Shown in pieces: positions 10,654 to 48,015 of a DNA stretch of 64,000 nucleotides. Each line of letters opens with the position of its first letter. Position 1 is the stretch's first letter. A program made the translations under genes and the position numbers. Origin of the DNA: Cyclina sinensis (Eukaryota; Mollusca; Bivalvia; Venerida; Veneridae); contig JAAONU010000001.1 of NCBI GenBank assembly GCA_012932295.1, forward strand, positions 59,493,693 to 59,557,692. Reading direction: 5' to 3'. The notes under the pieces were generated by a model. It did not search any database, was not told the origin of the DNA, and worked only from the letters and a program-made list of their open reading frames with translations.

Positions 10654-12003
10654 AAAAAAGTTTAAGAAAACTGAAGCTTAAAAAAGAGTTGTGTATGGAT
10701 TTCGAAACCCTTCAGGTGATTGTAGCAGCCTTACACTACTAGCGCACACCCTGGGGCCCCTAGTCCACTCTTTAATGCACTAAGGATTGTTTCATTTGTC
10801 TTTTATATATTCACTACAAACTGGTTTGACATTAATTTTGGTAATTATTTTGAATTTGTTAACATTTCTTTTTAGAAAGATATTTAGTTGATTTATCAAA
10901 ATTTGAGTCAGAGATGTTAGTAGAAAAACTGGATGAATTTGAAATGCTTATGTATGGTTTATTATGGGGCATAGAGATTTTGCATCTTATTTACTGTTAA
11001 TGATTGAAAATGTTTGTTTTCTTTTAATCAGTTTTATTTTTAGCCTCATGCATATATGATATAATAATGTTCCTGTTTATAGTTCTTCTTATCCAGGATT
11101 CAAAGTATTATTTAAAATGAAAAAGTGAAAGAGCTCATCATTTGAAAAAAAAGAGTTTAAGAAAACTGAAGCTTAAAAAAGAGTTGTATATGGATTTCGA
11201 AACCCTTCAGTTGACTGTAGCAGCCTTACACTACTAGCGGACACCCTGAGGCCCCTAGTCCACTCTTTAATGCACTAAAGATTATTTCATTCGTCTTTTA
11301 AATATTCACTACAAACTGGTTTGACATTAATTTTGGAAATTATTTTGAATTTGTTAACATTTCTTTTTAGAAAGATATTTAGTTGATTTATCCAAATTTG
11401 GGTCAGAGATGTTAGTTGAAAAACTGGATGAATTTGAAATGCTTACGTATGGTTTATTATGGGGCATAGAGATTTTGCATCGTATTTACTATTTATGATT
11501 AAAAATGTTTGTTTTCTTTTAATCAGTTTTATTTTTAGCCTCATGCATATATGATATAATGATGTTCCTGTTTATAGTTCTTCAAATCCAGGATTCAAAG
11601 TATTATTTATAGATTCATTTCAATCAATAATGCAACAATGCATTGTACGAGGGGTGATTCAAAAGTTCGCGGAATTTATCTCTAAATCATTTATTTTTTC
11701 ACCGAATCACATTAAATTTCGCATAAATATAATTCAACGTATTTTAACTAACATTTTCGTTTAGTTTATGGAATATGTGTAACCGGAAGAATATAAATGG
11801 TCTCCATAGCAACCACGGTTAGGTGACTTGAAGCAGGCCAAAATATTTCGTTTTACTAATTCACTTCAGACGATAGTATGTTTTCAAATGTTGCTCAATT
11901 TTGGCGCGAACGTAACTGACGTTAGAATGACGTGTTGACGTCATTTCCTATAATTTTGATTACATTACGTTGAACCGTTACTCCACAGCAGCGAGTTGTC
12001 GCC

Positions 12004-12708
12004 ATGTCTTCAACTTCTTCCGCGACGTCAACAAGTGAATTGGAGCTACGCGCAGTTGTGAAATTTTGTGTTGGACTCAAACTTACACCAGTTGAGACGT
12101 TGAATCAAATTAAAAACTCGCATACATTACAACCTTGTGGTAAATCGTTTGTCTACAAATGGCATGAGCGATTTCGGAACGGCAGAAAATCGGTACTTGA
12201 TGACGATAGAGCAGGTAGACCAGCATCCGCTATGACGACGAGCAACGCAACGTTAGTGAGAGAGCTTTTGGACAACGACCGGCGCTTAACGGTTAGGGGT
12301 ATTGCAGAGGAACTCTCCCTATCGTATTCTACTGTGCAACGAATTCTTACAGAAGAGCTAAATATGTCCAAAGTATCTGCGCGTTGGGTGCCCAGACTTC
12401 TGACTGATGAAAACAAGCAGCGGAGGTTAGAATGTTCTCAGCAATTTCTGGATCTGTACGACGCACAGGGTGACGAGTTTTTGGACAAAATCATCACGAC
12501 AGACGAGACATGGTTATACCATTATGATCCAGAGTCGAAACAGCAGTCGTCCGTCTGGAAGTCACCAGACACACCTCCACCAAAAAAGGCCAGGACAACA
12601 CGCAGCTGCAAAAAGGAAATGTTCATCTTCTTCATGGATAGACAAGGGCTTTTGCTTCAACACAAGGTGCGCGACGGATGTACCGTAAATGCCGACTATT
12701 ATTCAAAG
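12004..12708 (+). CDS. Mariner transposase, exon 1 (DNA-binding half and first catalytic Asp)
   Basis: This is the N-terminal 235 residues of a cut-and-paste transposase acting in the nucleus on the element's own TIRs. The ATG sits in a good context (GCCATGT). Residues about 13-75 form the first helix-turn-helix region (RAVVKFC...CGKSFVYKWHERF) ending in an AGRP linker. A second helix-turn-helix follows (RGIAEELSLSYSTVQRIL, about 98-116). The mariner motif WVPxLLT starts at W128. The first catalytic aspartate is D167 in TTDETW. The exon ends after YYSK in phase 0 at a GTATG donor. If the intron were retained, 17 extra residues and a stop at 12760 would give a 252-residue protein with both DNA-binding domains but lacking two catalytic aspartates. 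I recognise the mariner family with high confidence; the subfamily is not resolved. Confidence 0.93.
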
Positions 12709-12893
12709 GTATGCCGCATTTTAGTCATACAAACGATCAACACTTATATATTATTTTTATAACAAACTAATATTTTACAGTATGTATTGTTTCAAATAAC
12801 AAAATATATAAAAATATTATTTAAAATGTGCCGCTTTTTACTTTCTTAAACTTAAATTATTTCATGTTTTCCCGTTTGTTTGTTTGACTTCAG
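12709..12893 (+). other. Spliceosomal-type intron inside the mariner transposase
   Basis: The 185-bp AT-rich stretch begins AAG|GTATGC and ends in a pyrimidine-rich tract then GACTTCAG|GTG. Removing it joins ...NADYYSK to VLRRDLIQAL... without loss of frame, restoring the continuous mariner pattern between the first Asp block and the HHDNAPAHRA block. The intron is phase 0. Mariner transposases are usually intronless, so this is unusual. No transcript evidence is available here; splicing is inferred from the consensus and frame. Confidence 0.8.
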
Positions 12894-13295
12894 GTGCTTA
12901 GACGCGATCTGATACAGGCTCTGCGCCGCAAGCGCCCCCTGTTGGTACTGGATGATGTTATACTCCATCATGACAACGCTCCAGCACATCGGGCACAGAG
13001 TACAGAGTTAGAGATTTCACTGCTTGGTTTCAGTCTCTTACCACATCCGCCGTACAGCCCGGATCTAGCACCGATGGACTTTCGTCTGTTTCCAGATATG
13101 AAGAGGGAACTCAGAGGCCAGAGATTTGAAACAACATTAGAGCTACGCAATAAGGCTCGTGAAGTAATCTCTTCATTCAGTCAGGATTGGTTTAAGGTAA
13201 CATTTATGCAATGGGTACAAAGGCATAGGAAGTGTGTAGCGACGGGCGGCGATTACGTCGAGAAGGTGAATCGTACGCTAGAATTTGACCGTTAG
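12894..13295 (+). CDS. Mariner transposase, exon 2 (second and third catalytic Asp)
   Basis: This is the C-terminal 133 residues, continuing exon 1 in frame to a total of 368 residues, slightly more than the ~345 typical for mariner. It begins VLRRDLIQ; the GTG at 12894 is an internal valine codon, not a start. The second catalytic Asp is D262 in HHDNAPAHRA. The third is D297 in YSPDLAPMDF, with exactly 34 residues between them (DD34D). The stop is the TAG at 13293-13295. A run of GACGTCGACGTCG follows in the 3' untranslated region. All three acidic residues are present, so the enzyme may be active. Confidence 0.93.
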   Translation: MLRRDLIQALRRKRPLLVLDDVILHHDNAPAHRAQSTELEISLLGFSLLPHPPYSPDLAPMDFRLFPDMKRELRGQRFETTLELRNKAREVISSFSQDWFKVTFMQWVQRHRKCVATGGDYVEKVNRTLEFDR

Positions 13296-28423: not shown

Positions 28424-28714
28424 TTATCTATCTGAGATTATTTGTTGTCGGTACCGGTTGCCCATATGACCGACGCCACCTGAAGAGATTAGTTAATTTA
28501 TGTTGTCGGGGTAGTGCAAGATACAGAAAGCATCTCATTCCACAGACACCCCTGGTTCTTTTGTATGCTCAGTGTATAGCACTGATACATGGAGCCTCAG
28601 TTTAACGTCTCATCCGAAAGACTATTAGTAATGTTAGTGCAGGAGCGGGGGATCGAATTCCAGACCCCTAGTTTAACAGTCCAGCGCGTTACCAATGGAC
28701 CACAACCGCTCCTG
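28424..28714 (-). mobile_element. tRNA-derived SINE with 10-bp target duplication
   Basis: The 291-bp insert is flanked by perfect direct repeats ATAGATACAC (28414-28423 and 28715-28724). On the minus strand its head reads GGAGCGGTTGTGGTCCATTGG, then GCGC TGGA CTGTTAA, then a B-box-like GGAATTCGATCCCCC, resembling a tRNA with a CTGTTAA anticodon loop (Asn-like). The body contains GTCTTTCGGATGAGACGT, a motif I recall from SINE bodies of molluscs, though I cannot verify the family here. It sits in a reversed fragment of the 22229-24278 family. The frame 28589-28789 is a read-through of this SINE. Confidence 0.75.
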
Positions 28715-28724
28715 ATAGATACAC

Positions 28725-29361: not shown

Positions 29362-30110
29362 TTTTTATGCCCCCAAAGGGAGGCATATAGTAAACGCACT
29401 GTCTGTCCGTCAGTCCGTCTGTCCTGTAAAATCTTCTCCACTATTCATCTCCAAAACAGCTTGGAGGATTTCATTGAAACTTCACAGAAATGTTTGTCAC
29501 CAAGCCTTGTTGTGCATATCATCAGGAGTTTCAGCTCATATTATTTTTGGCAGAGTTATGGGCACTTAGTCATTTTTTACTTTAACTTCTATATTAAAAT
29601 CCTGTCCACACTTTATCTCCAAAACCACTGGAAGATTTCAATATAACTAAACAGGAATGTTTGTCACCAAACCTAGCTGTGCATATCATCAGGAGTTTCT
29701 GGTCGGATTATTTTTGGCAGAGTTATGGGCCCTTAGTCATTTTTTACTATATTTTCTACATTTAAATCTTGTCCAAGCTACATCTCCAAAACCACTTTGG
29801 GGATTTTATTGAAACCAGAATGTTTGTCATCAAGCCTTGTTATATATAAAACATCAGTAGGTGTTGGGAATGAAACAATATTGTACGTATTCAAGGTCAG
29901 ACTCACAGCTTTCTATTTGAATAATTATGTCTTCAACCTTCAGATAAGAACCTGAAGCAGAAAAACATTACTTTACCATTTACCTTCTGTTCATGCTCTA
30001 TTTTTTGTCTGATCTCTTTTCCACAGGAATATTCAAATATATATTTACACCAGTTTCATTTCAAAGCTACATTTCTGGGGCATATGTCAATTTCCAGTGA
30101 CAGCTCTTGT
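29362..30110 (-). mobile_element. Minus-strand CTGTCACTGG-type element
   Basis: On the minus strand it starts AACAAGAGCTGTCACTGGAAATTGACATATGCCCC (like 41607). It has units with CATAACTCTGCCAAAAATAATC, CTGATGATATGCACA and AAATC-TCCA-GTGGTTTTGGAGAT, a GACAGACGGACTGACGGACAGACAG tract, and a 3' hairpin ATATGCCTCCCTTTGGGGGCATA at 29366-29388. The frame 29461-29646 is repeat-derived. Confidence 0.75.
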
Positions 30111-41606: not shown

Positions 41607-42730
41607 CAAGATCTGTCACTGGAAATTGACATATGCCCCCCGAAATGTACATTTGAAATGAAACTGGTGTAAATATATAATTGAATATGCCTGTGGAAAA
41701 GAGATCAGACAAAAAAATAGAGCATGAACTGAATGTAAATGGTAAAGAAATTTTTTTTTTGCTTCAGATTCTTATATGAAGGTTGAAGACATATTTTATT
41801 CAATGAAATAGAAAGCTGTGAGTTTGGCCTTGAATATGAACAATGATGTTTTATTCCCAACCCCTACTGATGTTTTATATATTACAAGGCTATGTGACAA
41901 ACATTCTGGTTACAATAAAATCCCCCAAGCGGTTTTGTATAAGTATCTTGGACAAGATTTTAATATAGAAGTTAAAGTAAAAAAATGGCTAAGGGCCCAT
42001 AACTCTGCCAAAAATAATCAGACCAGAAACTCCTGATGATATGCACAGCTAGGTTTGGTGACAAACATTCCTTTGTAGTTTCAATGAAATCCTCAAGTAG
42101 TTTTGGAGATGAAGCATGGACAAGATTTTAATATAGAAGTTAGAGGAAAAAATGACTAAGTGCCCATAACTCTGCCAAAAATAATCTAAGCAGAAAATCC
42201 TGATGATATTCACAACAAGGCTTGGTGACAAACATTCCTGTGAAGTTTCAATGAAATCCTCAAGTAGTTTTGGAGATGAAGCATGGACAAGATTTTAATA
42301 TAGAAGTTAGAGTAAAAAATGACTAAGTGCCCATAACTCTGCCAAAAATAATCTAAGCAGAAAATCCTGATGATATTCACAACAAGGCTTGGTGACAAAC
42401 ATATTCCTGTGAAGTTTCAATGAAATCCTCCAAGCGGTTTTGGAGATGAATTTGGACAAGATTTTAATATAATAGAAGTTAGAGTAAAACATGACTTAGT
42501 GCCAATAACTCTGCCCAAAAAAAAAAATTGAGTGGAATCTCCTGACGATATGCACAACTAGGCTTGGAGACATTTAAACACTCCTGTTAAGATTCAATGA
42601 AATCCCTCAAGCAGTTTTGGAGATGAAGAGAGGACAAGATTTTACAGGACAGACAGACGGACTGAAGGACTGATGGACGGATGGACAGACAGTGCGATTA
42701 CTATATGCCTCCTTTCAGGGGGAATAAAAA
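41607..42730 (+). mobile_element. CTGTCACTGG-type element with ~165-bp units
   Basis: After AAAC it starts AAGATCTGTCACTGGAAATTGACATATGCCCCCC. At least four units of about 165 bp follow (CCATAACTCTGCCAAAAATAATC, CTGATGATAT-CACAAC, GGCTTGGTGACAAACATTCC, GTTTTGGAGATGAAGCATGG). A GACAGACAGACGGACTG... tract lies at 42649-42700. The 3' hairpin ATATGCCTCCTTTCAGGGGGAATA ends it. Minus-strand frames at 42049, 42210 and 42307 are successive copies of the same unit. Confidence 0.85.
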
Positions 42731-44505: not shown

Positions 44506-45001
44506 CCTGAAAAGCCTTTTTAAAGTTCTACCATGCATTACAAAGTTATGGTGCAGACAATATCATGCAGGCAGACTGATCAACAGAGGCAACACACAAC
44601 TGATGCATATACAATGAACTGCTTATACTGCAACTATGTCAAGCTCCTCCAAGCAAAATTAACGAAAGGTCTAAAAAGTTGCTGGATGTGAGTTTCATCG
44701 AATATAGCCTCTGTTTACCTGATAAAGTCAACCATATGTCTGCTTCTTGGCATTTTTGTGTTCCCCTACCTTCCAAATGATAATGAAATCACCATTGTTT
44801 CATGACCATGAAATCATAGCCAAAGTGCTTTCCTGCTTTACTTTTATGTACTTTAAGAGCACAAATACTGGTAGTAAACCTTATCCTTAACCACCTGCAG
44901 GTGTGAGGTAGTTAACTCACAGTAATAAAATATTAATAAAATCAGAATTCCCTCAAGGCATTACAAATACTCTGGAGAAGTTTCAGTAATCTCATTACTA
45001 A
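44506..45001. other. No gene seen
   Basis: Plain AT-rich sequence between the 94-bp fragment and the LTR element. Confidence 0.45.
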
Positions 45002-45871
45002 TATTATGATCGGTAATTTGTTGTGAGGTTTTTCTTGGCGATATATTTGTTGTCGTTTTGGTTGACAAATGGATGTTTAATTACAAAACTGTCTGAATAA
45101 TGTTTTTCAAATTTTATTTACTTGTTAACAAGATAACATTTCCATAGTTCTAACACAATAGTCCATAAATACTTCAACATGAACTGTTATTTAATTTAAT
45201 TCATAAGTTTTTAAGTCACAAAGTTATTAATCTATATATTTTCTTCTGACACAAAGTAGTTTTTCTTTTCACAAAGTTCTCTCTAAAATTTATCCAACAC
45301 CAAGTAGTTTTTCTCTTATGAAATTTAAATGTCTCTCCGTTTAAAAATGATTTGTTGCTTCTTTTATAGTGTATACCTCTAATCTGGCATTAACACCTAA
45401 AAAATACTCATGTGTCAAGGATTATTAAAATACTGATTACTAATCTAGTTAGGAATGAATTCATTTTTGCTTTTTTTTCTAATATAAAAGATTATTATGT
45501 ATTCATTTCCTAATCAGACCTCAGCACATGGTGTCAACATTTGAAGTAAAAATGGCTTTAAAAACATTAACATTCTAGACAGATTACACTGAAGGTGCTA
45601 ATAGAAAGCCAGATGACAAAAACAACACATTAACAGATTATTGAGCTACCTTTCTTCTCAAAAAATAACTGAGCTCAAATAATGTTGATTTTCAAAATTG
45701 ATAGAAGTTTAATATTGTAAAATAAAATTAATATTTTCACATTCCTTATTAATCAACTATTCTATTAACAATAAATTTGACAATGAAAAGTTAAAATTCA
45801 CAACAATTATATTTAAAATTCTGTGTTATGATGCTTTAAGATATTGTTTTAAAAAAATGTGCATCATGATA
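45002..45871 (-). repeat. LTR (3' LTR in element orientation)
   Basis: 870 bp, AT-rich, bounded by the short inverted repeat TATTATGAT...ATCATGATA. On the minus strand it includes an AATAAA near its distal end and TATATA-like stretches, as expected of an LTR that supplies promoter and polyadenylation signals. Identical by eye to 46949-47818. Confidence 0.8.
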
Positions 45872-45907
45872 ATTCCTCCGCACTCTGTTGAATTTCGACC
45901 TCGAAAT

Positions 45908-46813
45908 TTAAGTTGTTTCCTCACCATTTACATCTTGAAGACCAGGAGCTGCTTCTTTACAGAAGATTGTTAGGTGGTCAGATTTTTGGTTACAGTATCC
46001 ACATGGCTTTTCGACTTTTAATGCTGCACAGTGCAGTTCATGATGGTACTTTTTGCTGCCACATTTGTCACAGTTAAATTTCAAGTTCTGATAATAATTT
46101 TGTTCTTGCCATGACCGACCAGATGGATTGATGTACAGGAACAATTCACTGATATAACTTGATAAGCTGGTTATGTCATCTAAACTTTTCCTGTACAGGT
46201 CTTCACTGTTAGAAATGATAAGCTCATTATCCTCTTTTTCTTCTTGAAGTTGCGAATTTAGGTCTTCAATTTGTTTTTGTAATTTTTCAATTTCCTCATG
46301 ATCAAAATTCCTTGTTATAATTGGCTCTTCATGCACATTCTCATATTTTTTAATCATTCTTTGTAATTCCATTATTGTCCTTTTCATTTCATGGTTTTCC
46401 TTCTGAAGAATTTCTGTTTTAAGAGTTTGGAGATTTGAACTGGTCTTACACATTTTCCTTAATTCTAAACTGTCTACACAGCTATATGGCATAATTGAAC
46501 AAATATAGTCTTTTTCTATATTTTCCTCCTGATTAGATGGTTCTTGTACTTCTTTACGAGGCATAGTACAACTTGAAGCCATTCTGTTTCTAGACAGATC
46601 AGTTCTGCAGAACTCTGCTAAATGATTGTAACATCTACATTTGTAACAACGCCTGTTCATAGCCTTACAGAAATGCTTATAAACATACCTCACACCACAG
46701 CGACCACATTGTTGAGAGTCAAACCTCTGCAGCATTGAAGGACAGAAATTTGCAAACCTTGTCCTAGTAAATGGAAGCTTTCTGTTGGTAAGAATATTTG
46801 GTCTGTACTCCAT
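45908..46813 (-). CDS. Gag-like protein with two zinc-knuckle pairs and a coiled coil
   Basis: A 301-residue ORF filling nearly the whole internal region: 135 nt leader from the 5' LTR, 36 nt from stop to the 3' LTR. The basic N terminus (MEYRPNILTNRKLP...) leads to a Cys/His module at about 36-69: CGRC...HFC, then CYKCRCYNHLAEFC, the latter a canonical CX2CX4HX4C knuckle. Residues about 127-205 are strongly heptad-like (LQTLKTEILQKENHEMKR..., IEKLQKQIEDLNSQLQEE), a coiled coil. A second Cys/His module at 248-285 (CDKCG...HC, CGYC...DHLTIFC) aligns with the first, so the protein has duplicated modules at both ends. Paired knuckles of this type occur in gag nucleocapsids, suggesting RNA binding and particle assembly. 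No recognisable capsid domain is seen. Alternatives are a captured host zinc-finger gene or a retroelement accessory ORF. Confidence 0.7.
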   Translation of the reverse strand: MEYRPNILTNRKLPFTRTRFANFCPSMLQRFDSQQCGRCGVRYVYKHFCKAMNRRCYKCRCYNHLAEFCRTDLSRNRMASSCTMPRKEVQEPSNQEENIEKDYICSIMPYSCVDSLELRKMCKTSSNLQTLKTEILQKENHEMKRTIMELQRMIKKYENVHEEPIITRNFDHEEIEKLQKQIEDLNSQLQEEKEDNELIISNSEDLYRKSLDDITSLSSYISELFLYINPSGRSWQEQNYYQNLKFNCDKCGSKKYHHELHCAALKVEKPCGYCNQKSDHLTIFCKEAAPGLQDVNGEETT

Positions 46814-46948
46814 CAGCTATCTCCTCGTAACTGGATCAAAAGTTGCTTGTTTTTCGTTGATTAGGGGAATCTTCTCGCTTCTATGCTGGCAGGGTCGACC
46901 AAGAAAGTGACAGCAGGAAAGTGCTGTCCCCGGCAATCTCCACCAAAA

Positions 46949-47818
46949 TATTATGATCGGTAATTTGTTGTGAGGTTTTTCTTGGCGATATATTTGTTGT
47001 CGTTTTGGTTGACAAATGGATGTTTAATTACAAAACTGTCTGAATAATGTTTTTCAAATTTTATTTACTTGTTAACAAGATAACATTTCCATAGTTCTAA
47101 CACAATAGTCCATAAATACTTCAACATGAACTGTTATTTAATTTAATTCATAAGTTTTTAAGTCACAAAGTTATTAATCTATATATTTTCTTCTGACACA
47201 AAGTAGTTTTTCTTTTCACAAAGTTCTCTCTAAAATTTATCCAACACCAAGTAGTTTTTCTCTTATGAAATTTAAATGTCTCTCCGTTTAAAAATGATTT
47301 GTTGCTTCTTTTATAGTGTATACCTCTAATCTGGCATTAACACCTAAAAAATACTCATGTGTCAAGGATTATTAAAATACTGATTACTAATCTAGTTAGG
47401 AATGAATTCATTTTTGCTTTTTTTTCTAATATAAAAGATTATTATGTATTCATTTCCTAATCAGACCTCAGCACATGGTGTCAACATTTGAAGTAAAAAT
47501 GGCTTTAAAAACATTAACATTCTAGACAGATTACACTGAAGGTGCTAATAGAAAGCCAGATGACAAAAACAACACATTAACAGATTATTGAGCTACCTTT
47601 CTTCTCAAAAAATAACTGAGCTCAAATAATGTTGATTTTCAAAATTGATAGAAGTTTAATATTGTAAAATAAAATTAATATTTTCACATTCCTTATTAAT
47701 CAACTATTCTATTAACAATAAATTTGACAATGAAAAGTTAAAATTCACAACAATTATATTTAAAATTCTGTGTTATGATGCTTTAAGATATTGTTTTAAA
47801 AAAATGTGCATCATGATA
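46949..47818 (-). repeat. LTR (5' LTR in element orientation)
   Basis: The second 870-bp copy, the same length and sequence as 45002-45871 by eye. In element orientation it precedes the candidate primer-binding site and the gag-like ORF, so it would carry the active promoter. Confidence 0.8.
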
Positions 47819-47825
47819 CTACTAA

Positions 47826-48015
47826 GCAAAATTAAGGTAAAACAACACTGACAATACTGCTATACAACATTATGGTAAAGCAACTTTGACAATAATACTG
47901 AACAACATAATGGTACAACACTGACAATAATACTAAATAACATAATGGTGACATAACACTGACCATAATGCAAAACAACATTACAGTCAAACAACACTGA
48001 AATTAATAGTAAGCA
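47826..48015 (+). repeat. Short ~37-bp tandem repeat
   Basis: Four to five degenerate units of AACAACATAATGGTAAA and ACAACACTGACAATAATACT, directly right of the LTR element. Confidence 0.7.

What the first reader, a model, noticed from the sequence alone, without database searches (positions are those of the whole stretch)
45002..47819. Gag-only LTR element with identical LTRs in a mollusc-like genome
Seen: two 870-bp direct repeats, equal in length and identical by eye, around a 1077-bp interior whose only ORF is a 301-codon zinc-knuckle protein; TACTAA on both sides; candidate primer-binding site and purine tract in the right places. Known: plant TR-GAG elements encode only Gag and borrow the rest from autonomous partners. 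Inference: this is an animal counterpart, recently mobile given identical LTRs, and probably parasitises an autonomous LTR element with matching LTR ends.
Basis: partly seen in the sequence, partly recalled or inferred. Interest (0 to 1): 0.85.

Follow-up and report, generated by a model that had tools for sequence, protein, structure and literature searches.

The report
Mini retrotransposon with capsid-less Gag
This is a small, recently mobile LTR retrotransposon that carries only one gene, for a protein with RNA-binding zinc knuckles at both ends; it has a sister family in the same genome, and that sister shares its end and primer site with a complete-looking retrotransposon that could supply the missing enzymes.

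Summary
In detail: identical 870-bp LTRs (45002-45871, 46949-47818) around a 1077-bp interior with one 301-codon minus-strand ORF, a tRNA-Ala-like primer site and a purine tract. A protein search of the genome found a second compact family (16 full-length ~3.07-kb copies among the 40 candidates scored). Its 322-aa ORF is 26% identical over 295 aa, with the same layout: gypsy-Gag-type zinc-knuckle doublets at both ends, helical middle, no capsid domain detected. That ORF is full length in 18 of 19 copies compared and under purifying selection (dN/dS about 0.2). A family-2 LTR-end/primer-site pattern hit one further element with open gag and pol (protease, RT, RNase H, integrase): a good helper candidate. 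None was found for the window's family. 'Gag-only' is better read as 'nucleocapsid-only'. Non-autonomous LTR elements in bivalves and Gag-only ones elsewhere are known; a two-ended nucleocapsid ORF kept by selection is the new part. Its role in replication is inference.

The parts
46949..47818 (-). 5' LTR, 870 bp
   Evidence: Identical to the other LTR; termini set by family copies
45002..45871 (-). 3' LTR, 870 bp
46927..46945 (-). Primer-binding site, tRNA-Ala-like (TGGTGGAGATTGCCGGGGA), three bases after the LTR end
45908..46813 (-). 301-codon ORF: zinc-knuckle doublets at residues about 36-69 and 248-285, two predicted long helices 115-162 and 172-228
   Evidence: relative P0001 96% identical; family-2 relatives
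45873..45879 (-). Candidate polypurine tract GGAGGAA, one base before the 3' LTR
   Evidence: read directly
47819..47822 (.). 4-bp target duplication, element's 5' side (GTAG in element sense)
   Evidence: one mismatch to the other side
44998..45001 (.). 4-bp target duplication, element's 3' side (TTAG in element sense)

Best explanation
The element is a non-autonomous, gypsy-dependent LTR retrotransposon (family 1) of a compact lineage with at least two families in this genome. Both families have about 0.83-0.87-kb LTRs with TATTATG...CATAATA or CATATTA termini and 4-bp target duplications, and one ORF for a protein without a detectable capsid: a Gag-type nucleocapsid zinc-knuckle doublet at each end of a helical, perhaps dimerising middle. 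Shown: LTR structure, multi-copy dispersal, homology of the two ORFs, knuckle similarity to gypsy Gag nucleocapsid, purifying selection in family 2, and a pol-bearing element sharing family 2's LTR end and primer site. Inferred: the LTR transcript is translated, the protein binds that same RNA by its knuckles and carries it into particles built by an autonomous gypsy element, whose reverse transcriptase and integrase copy and insert it. Selection on an ORF of an element that borrows its enzymes suggests the protein works mainly in cis.
For: LTR, primer-site and purine-tract anatomy. Family 1: three full interiors (C1, two in a C3 tandem) identical to each other, two partial relics, and a single LTR in 17 of 20 loci fetched. 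Family 2: 16 full-length, 3 truncated, 3 partial, 18 LTR-only among the 40 scored of 87 candidates; exact 4-bp duplications in 9 of the 10 copies sampled, not in exemplar L033. ORF homology E 9e-18. Of 19 family-2 ORFs 18 are full length and none has an internal stop; mean dN 0.0127, dS 0.0596 over 171 pairs; 39 nonsynonymous to 38 synonymous single-change codons against about 3:1 expected, P 2.3e-6 or 5.6e-5 by transition bias. Knuckle doublets match the nucleocapsid end of a gypsy Gag. Helper candidate L074: junction with 3 of 22 specified bases changed, 16 of 20 further upstream bases alike (counted by eye), then gag and pol ORFs.
Against: No RNA, particle or mobilisation data. No helper found for family 1 itself. 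The helper candidate's 3' LTR was not fetched, and its stretch has no BLASTN match to either LTR or interior at E 0.001. Failure to detect a capsid is weak evidence: the Gag part of L072, a gypsy element with RT and integrase, is not recognised by PF03732 either. The structure models are poor (mean pLDDT 42.4 and 44.1), and a simple heptad count did not exceed shuffles. dN/dS was measured in family 2 only, on copies found by their ORF; 3 partial copies lacking most of it were not included; pairwise values are not independent. For family 1, 100 codons of one partial copy gave dN 0.051, dS 0.111.
Confidence: 0.6

Rival explanations
1. Ordinary Gag-only deletion derivative (TR-GAG type): the middle is a capsid too diverged to recognise, and the short copies arose by loss of pol from a gypsy element.
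For: Knuckles resemble gypsy Gag nucleocapsid; the Gag of a gypsy element in this genome (L072) also escapes the capsid model; the helper candidate shares family 2's LTR end and primer site.
Against: Two families at 26% identity keep the same layout; knuckle doublets at the N-terminus as well as the C-terminus is not Gag order; in the protein search, beyond the 5 family-1 and 19 family-2 places, none of the other 73 matches at E up to 10 spans the whole protein, and most cover residues about 30-80.
Confidence: 0.22
2. The ORF is a captured host gene for a CCHC protein, with no role in mobility.
For: No Pfam match above a curated cut-off and no PDB match at E below 0.29; LTR elements can transduce genes (general knowledge).
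Against: Same ORF layout in two LTR families with LTRs that show no more than short chance-like BLASTN matches; knuckles like those of a Gag nucleocapsid. Of the 97 protein matches I looked at the surroundings of only some.
Confidence: 0.07
3. The selection signal does not concern the element's own ORF function: a few source copies with an intact ORF spread recently and the copies simply inherit it.
For: Full-length copies are 95-97% alike to the exemplar, so there was little time for decay; singletons show a weaker signal (27:20, P 0.005 or 0.022).
Against: Differences are 4.7 times rarer per nonsynonymous than per synonymous site; a source line that keeps its ORF still implies selection during replication.
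Confidence: 0.1
4. Assembly duplication or chance repeat.
For: The LTRs are perfectly identical.
Against: C3 tandem and dispersed LTRs with own target duplications; sister family with the same plan.
Confidence: 0.01

Closest known systems
TR-GAG elements of plants (Chaparro et al. 2015, not held; described in passages of PMC8704663) and single-ORF Copia families of Ectocarpus (PMC12477816, passages)
   Same: LTRs, one Gag-type ORF, no pol; presumed helper
TRIM elements of bivalves (PMC6934838, passages)
   Same: Non-autonomous LTR elements in molluscs
   Different: TRIMs are under 1000 bp with 100-250-bp repeats; no canonical primer site could be identified in the bivalve ones
ERVL-MaLR of mammals (PMC11359688, passages)
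   Same: Animal LTR elements with gag homology, lacking pol and env; new insertions known in mouse (PMC3983883, passages)
   Different: Related to ERV-L retroviruses; no comparison of sequences made here
CM-gag of Culex pipiens (only its title seen, in the reference list of PMC3286476)
   Same: Animal repeated element said to contain only a gag gene
   Different: Not read; structure not compared
Troyka (PMC12440569, abstract and passages)
   Same: Termini other than TG...CA, rich in bivalves, non-autonomous members known
   Different: CG...CG termini, 3-bp duplications, LTRs of 100-400 bp

Membership tests
LTR retrotransposon | Near-identical direct LTRs around an interior | tested here: met
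   870 of 870 identical
LTR retrotransposon | Primer-binding site and polypurine tract at the inner LTR edges | tested here: met
   the tRNA identity rests on a recalled tRNA-Ala end, and the purine tract is short
LTR retrotransposon | Target-site duplication of 4-6 bp | tested here: met
   4 bp exact in 8 of 13 independent family-1 loci and in 9 of the 10 family-2 copies sampled, not in L033; the window copy has one mismatch
LTR retrotransposon | TG...CA termini (typical, not universal) | tested here: not met
   TATTATG...CATAATA / CATATTA
TR-GAG | Single ORF encoding Gag, no pol | tested here: inconclusive
   Single ORF, no pol; nucleocapsid-type knuckles yes, capsid not detected, but the capsid model also misses L072
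TR-GAG | Related autonomous partner | tested here: inconclusive
   Candidate for family 2; none for family 1
TRIM | Under 1000 bp, repeats of 100-250 bp | tested here: not met
   2.8 kb with 870-bp LTRs
Troyka | CG...CG termini and 3-bp duplications | tested here: not met
Metaviridae/Gypsy | Place of its reverse transcriptase in the RT phylogeny | not testable with these tools
   The element has no RT; placed only through Gag-type knuckles and the domain order of the helper candidate's pol

The most novel reading that the evidence does not exclude
A distinct class of satellite LTR retroelements that has replaced Gag by a capsid-less, two-ended nucleocapsid adaptor: each element encodes its own RNA-packaging protein, kept by selection in cis, to load its RNA into the particles of gypsy elements with matching integrase ends. 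The lineage is old (two families at 26% protein identity) and recently active.
Probability: 0.43. Interest if true: 0.8.

Novelty: new variant of a known kind. Interest (0 to 1): 0.63.

Why it matters
Non-autonomous LTR elements are usually seen as deletion products that keep only cis signals. A lineage that keeps one apparently capsid-less protein under selection would show that such parasites can evolve their own packaging factor, and it gives a concrete candidate helper/satellite pair (family 2 and the C16 element) with which to ask how retrotransposon RNA is sorted into particles.

Tried and rejected
The family-2 ORF has only sub-cut-off Pfam matches, zinc knuckles among them. Viral contigs and phages gave no relative. 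Three searches of the large protein collection found only P0001. A permissive Rfam scan found nothing in 44900-47950, so the retrozyme idea was dropped. The 5' leader does not fold better than shuffles. Troyka rejected on termini. L072 is a gypsy element with TGTTT...AAACA LTRs, so not a partner by its ends. L073 showed no LTR pair in 8 kb. L075, the other unexplained 3-mismatch junction hit, had no ORF above 153 codons and no relative, taken as chance. My first reading of a 4-bp ACTA duplication from the window alone gave way to the family data. Never answered: the genome search with the family-2 protein, meant to find further families, and separate genome searches with the interior and the LTR (not repeated). 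Literature: 10 searches; 'gag-only' with 'LTR retrotransposon' gave 0 papers; I saw no description of a two-ended zinc-knuckle, capsid-less LTR element in these listings, which cover open-licence papers only.

Full report
What is there. The repeat is exact over 872 bp. Copies elsewhere set the ends: LTR 45002-45871 and 46949-47818, read on the minus strand, beginning TATCATGAT (TATTATGAT in 14 of the 17 other rows) and ending ATCATAATA. Between them lie 1077 bp with one ORF of 301 codons, longer than any in 3000 simulated interiors. Three bases after the LTR end comes TGGTGGAGATTGCCGGGGA, which pairs with the recalled 3' end of an animal tRNA-Ala apart from one extra base. GGAGGAA stands one base before the 3' LTR.

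Copies of family 1 (49 matches, 40 candidates scored, so counts are lower bounds). Besides the window copy on C1 there is an LTR-interior-LTR-interior-LTR tandem on C3; both of its interiors equal the window's over 1077 bp, its middle LTR is identical, its last is identical over the 869 bases aligned, and its first is 99.3% alike (the one difference counted for the last LTR lies on the base outside the family terminus). Of the 20 loci fetched, one is this tandem, one has an LTR and the first 436 bases of the interior, one is a relic, and 17 show a single LTR in the stretch fetched, two of them interrupted, at about 82-99% identity. Two more loci (L031, L032) hold broken LTRs only. L012/L013, L017-L019 and L022/L023 share flanks, so they are duplications of the surrounding DNA. 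Counting those once and leaving out L020 (truncated), L010, L011, L031 and L032, 8 of 13 loci have exact 4-bp duplications. The window copy, not in that count, has GTAG/TTAG. Identical interiors at two places with different flanks show recent movement.

The protein. No Pfam match reaches a curated cut-off, and PDB sequences give nothing better than E 0.29. It has three well-formed knuckles, one Cx2Cx4Hx4C and two Cx2Cx5Hx4C, and before the first of them a degenerate one whose first cysteine is a phenylalanine in P0001. P0001 is a 301-aa protein, 96% identical, cluster of 3 member sequences on 1 contig, from a source labelled lgn; its host is not given. The second model has two long helices, 115-162 and 172-228, with moderate confidence and no confident fold elsewhere.

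A sister family. The protein against the genome gave 97 matches at E up to 10: the 3 intact copies, 2 partial ones, and 19 open frames of 317-330 codons at 25-28% identity, E 5e-13 to 1e-8; the other 73 are weak and mostly cover residues about 30-80, often in long ORFs. One place, L033, was read in full: 834-bp repeats with 1 difference around an interior of about 1.4 kb with one 322-aa ORF. BLASTP between the two ORFs: 77 of 295 identical, E 9e-18, with both knuckle doublets in register. DNA search: 16 full-length copies of about 3.07 kb, 95-97% alike to the exemplar, 3 truncated, 3 partial, 18 LTR-only among the 40 scored of 87 candidates; none of the 40 showed a longer interior. The ends are TATTATGC...GCATATTA; 9 of the 10 copies sampled have exact 4-bp duplications, while the tenth and L033 do not.

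Selection. Over 19 copies and 171 pairs mean dN is 0.0127 and dS 0.0596. Over 317 shared codons, two-state single-change codons split 38 synonymous to 39 nonsynonymous, 22 other variable codons set aside; random change would give about 3.1 or 2.6 nonsynonymous per synonymous with transition bias 2 or 4; binomial P 2.3e-6 or 5.6e-5; for singletons 20 to 27, P 0.005 or 0.022. These tests ignore the tree. One of the 19 (L048) has lost its start region. The 3 partial copies hold only the end of the ORF and were not included.

Gag or not. In L073 a 363-codon Gag ORF hits PF03732 (E 8e-5, just under the curated cut-off) and lies before protease, RT and RNase H pieces. Its C-terminal knuckle doublet matches the N-terminal doublet of the window protein (E 1e-8 for this single comparison) and the C-terminal doublet of the family-2 protein (E 2e-6); the other two pairings are weak (E 0.27 and 0.008). 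So the ends of these proteins are nucleocapsid-like. No capsid part is detected in either ORF, but PF03732 also fails to show in L072, a gypsy element with RT, RNase H and integrase, so this absence is not proof. 'Nucleocapsid-only' is the safer name on present evidence.

Helper. The family-1 junction (LTR end, 3 bases, primer site) with up to 3 mismatches occurs only at the three family-1 interiors; control 0. The family-2 junction gave 20 hits, control 0: 18 lie in family-2 copies by their coordinates, one (L075) looks like chance, and one, C16:3540413, opens an element with a 427-codon gag ORF (PF03732, E 1e-6, above cut-off) and a pol ORF of at least 1432 codons with protease, RT, RNase H and integrase, open to the end of the stretch fetched. 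Beyond the pattern, 16 of the 20 bases upstream also agree (by eye), which the pattern did not select for. The rest of its LTR has no BLASTN match to family 1 or 2 at E 0.001, and its 3' LTR was not fetched. The family-2 protein's C-terminal doublet also matches this Gag's end (E 4e-7).

Mechanism. I think the protein is an RNA adaptor that packages its own transcript into helper particles. Shown: structure, spread, selection in family 2, shared end and primer site in family 2. Inferred: transcription, RNA binding, dimerisation, packaging, helper enzymes, and the extension of all this to family 1.

Known relatives. TR-GAG elements move in Arabidopsis (PMC8704663, passages). Ectocarpus has Copia families with one gag-like ORF (PMC12477816, passages). 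Bivalves have TRIMs (PMC6934838, passages). Mammalian ERVL-MaLR lack pol and env and have gag homology (PMC11359688, passages). So Gag-only non-autonomous LTR elements are not new as such, in animals either. The two-ended knuckle ORF without a detected capsid, conserved between families and under selection, is what I did not see described in the ten searches listed.

Limits. Host identity, expression and mobility were not tested. The search machine was often unreachable, so further families and other helpers were hardly sought.

Noticed in passing
L074 (C16:3534900-3541400), minus strand: Gypsy-type element with gag and pol ORFs open in the stretch read, sharing family 2's LTR end and primer site
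   Followed up: partly
window 47816-48012: 38-bp minisatellite that begins at the element's right junction; the joined flanks align with its unit from the junction on, so the element inserted at the array's edge
   Followed up: partly
window 11974-13295 (+): Mariner-like transposase pieces in two different frames
   Followed up: partly
window 28625-28715 (-): tRNA-like stretch, read by eye, not called by ARAGORN; perhaps a SINE head
   Followed up: no
window 29464-29927 and 41797-42402: Inverted repeats 85-92% complementary about 12 kb apart, lying in arrays of a 167-bp tandem unit
   Followed up: no
L027 and L028: Two family-1 LTRs interrupted at about the same LTR position (440) by 0.87 and 0.75 kb: a longer LTR subfamily or a shared insertion
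   Followed up: no
L009 (C3:32118500-32126500): Three-LTR, two-interior tandem of family 1, as recombination between copies could produce
   Followed up: partly
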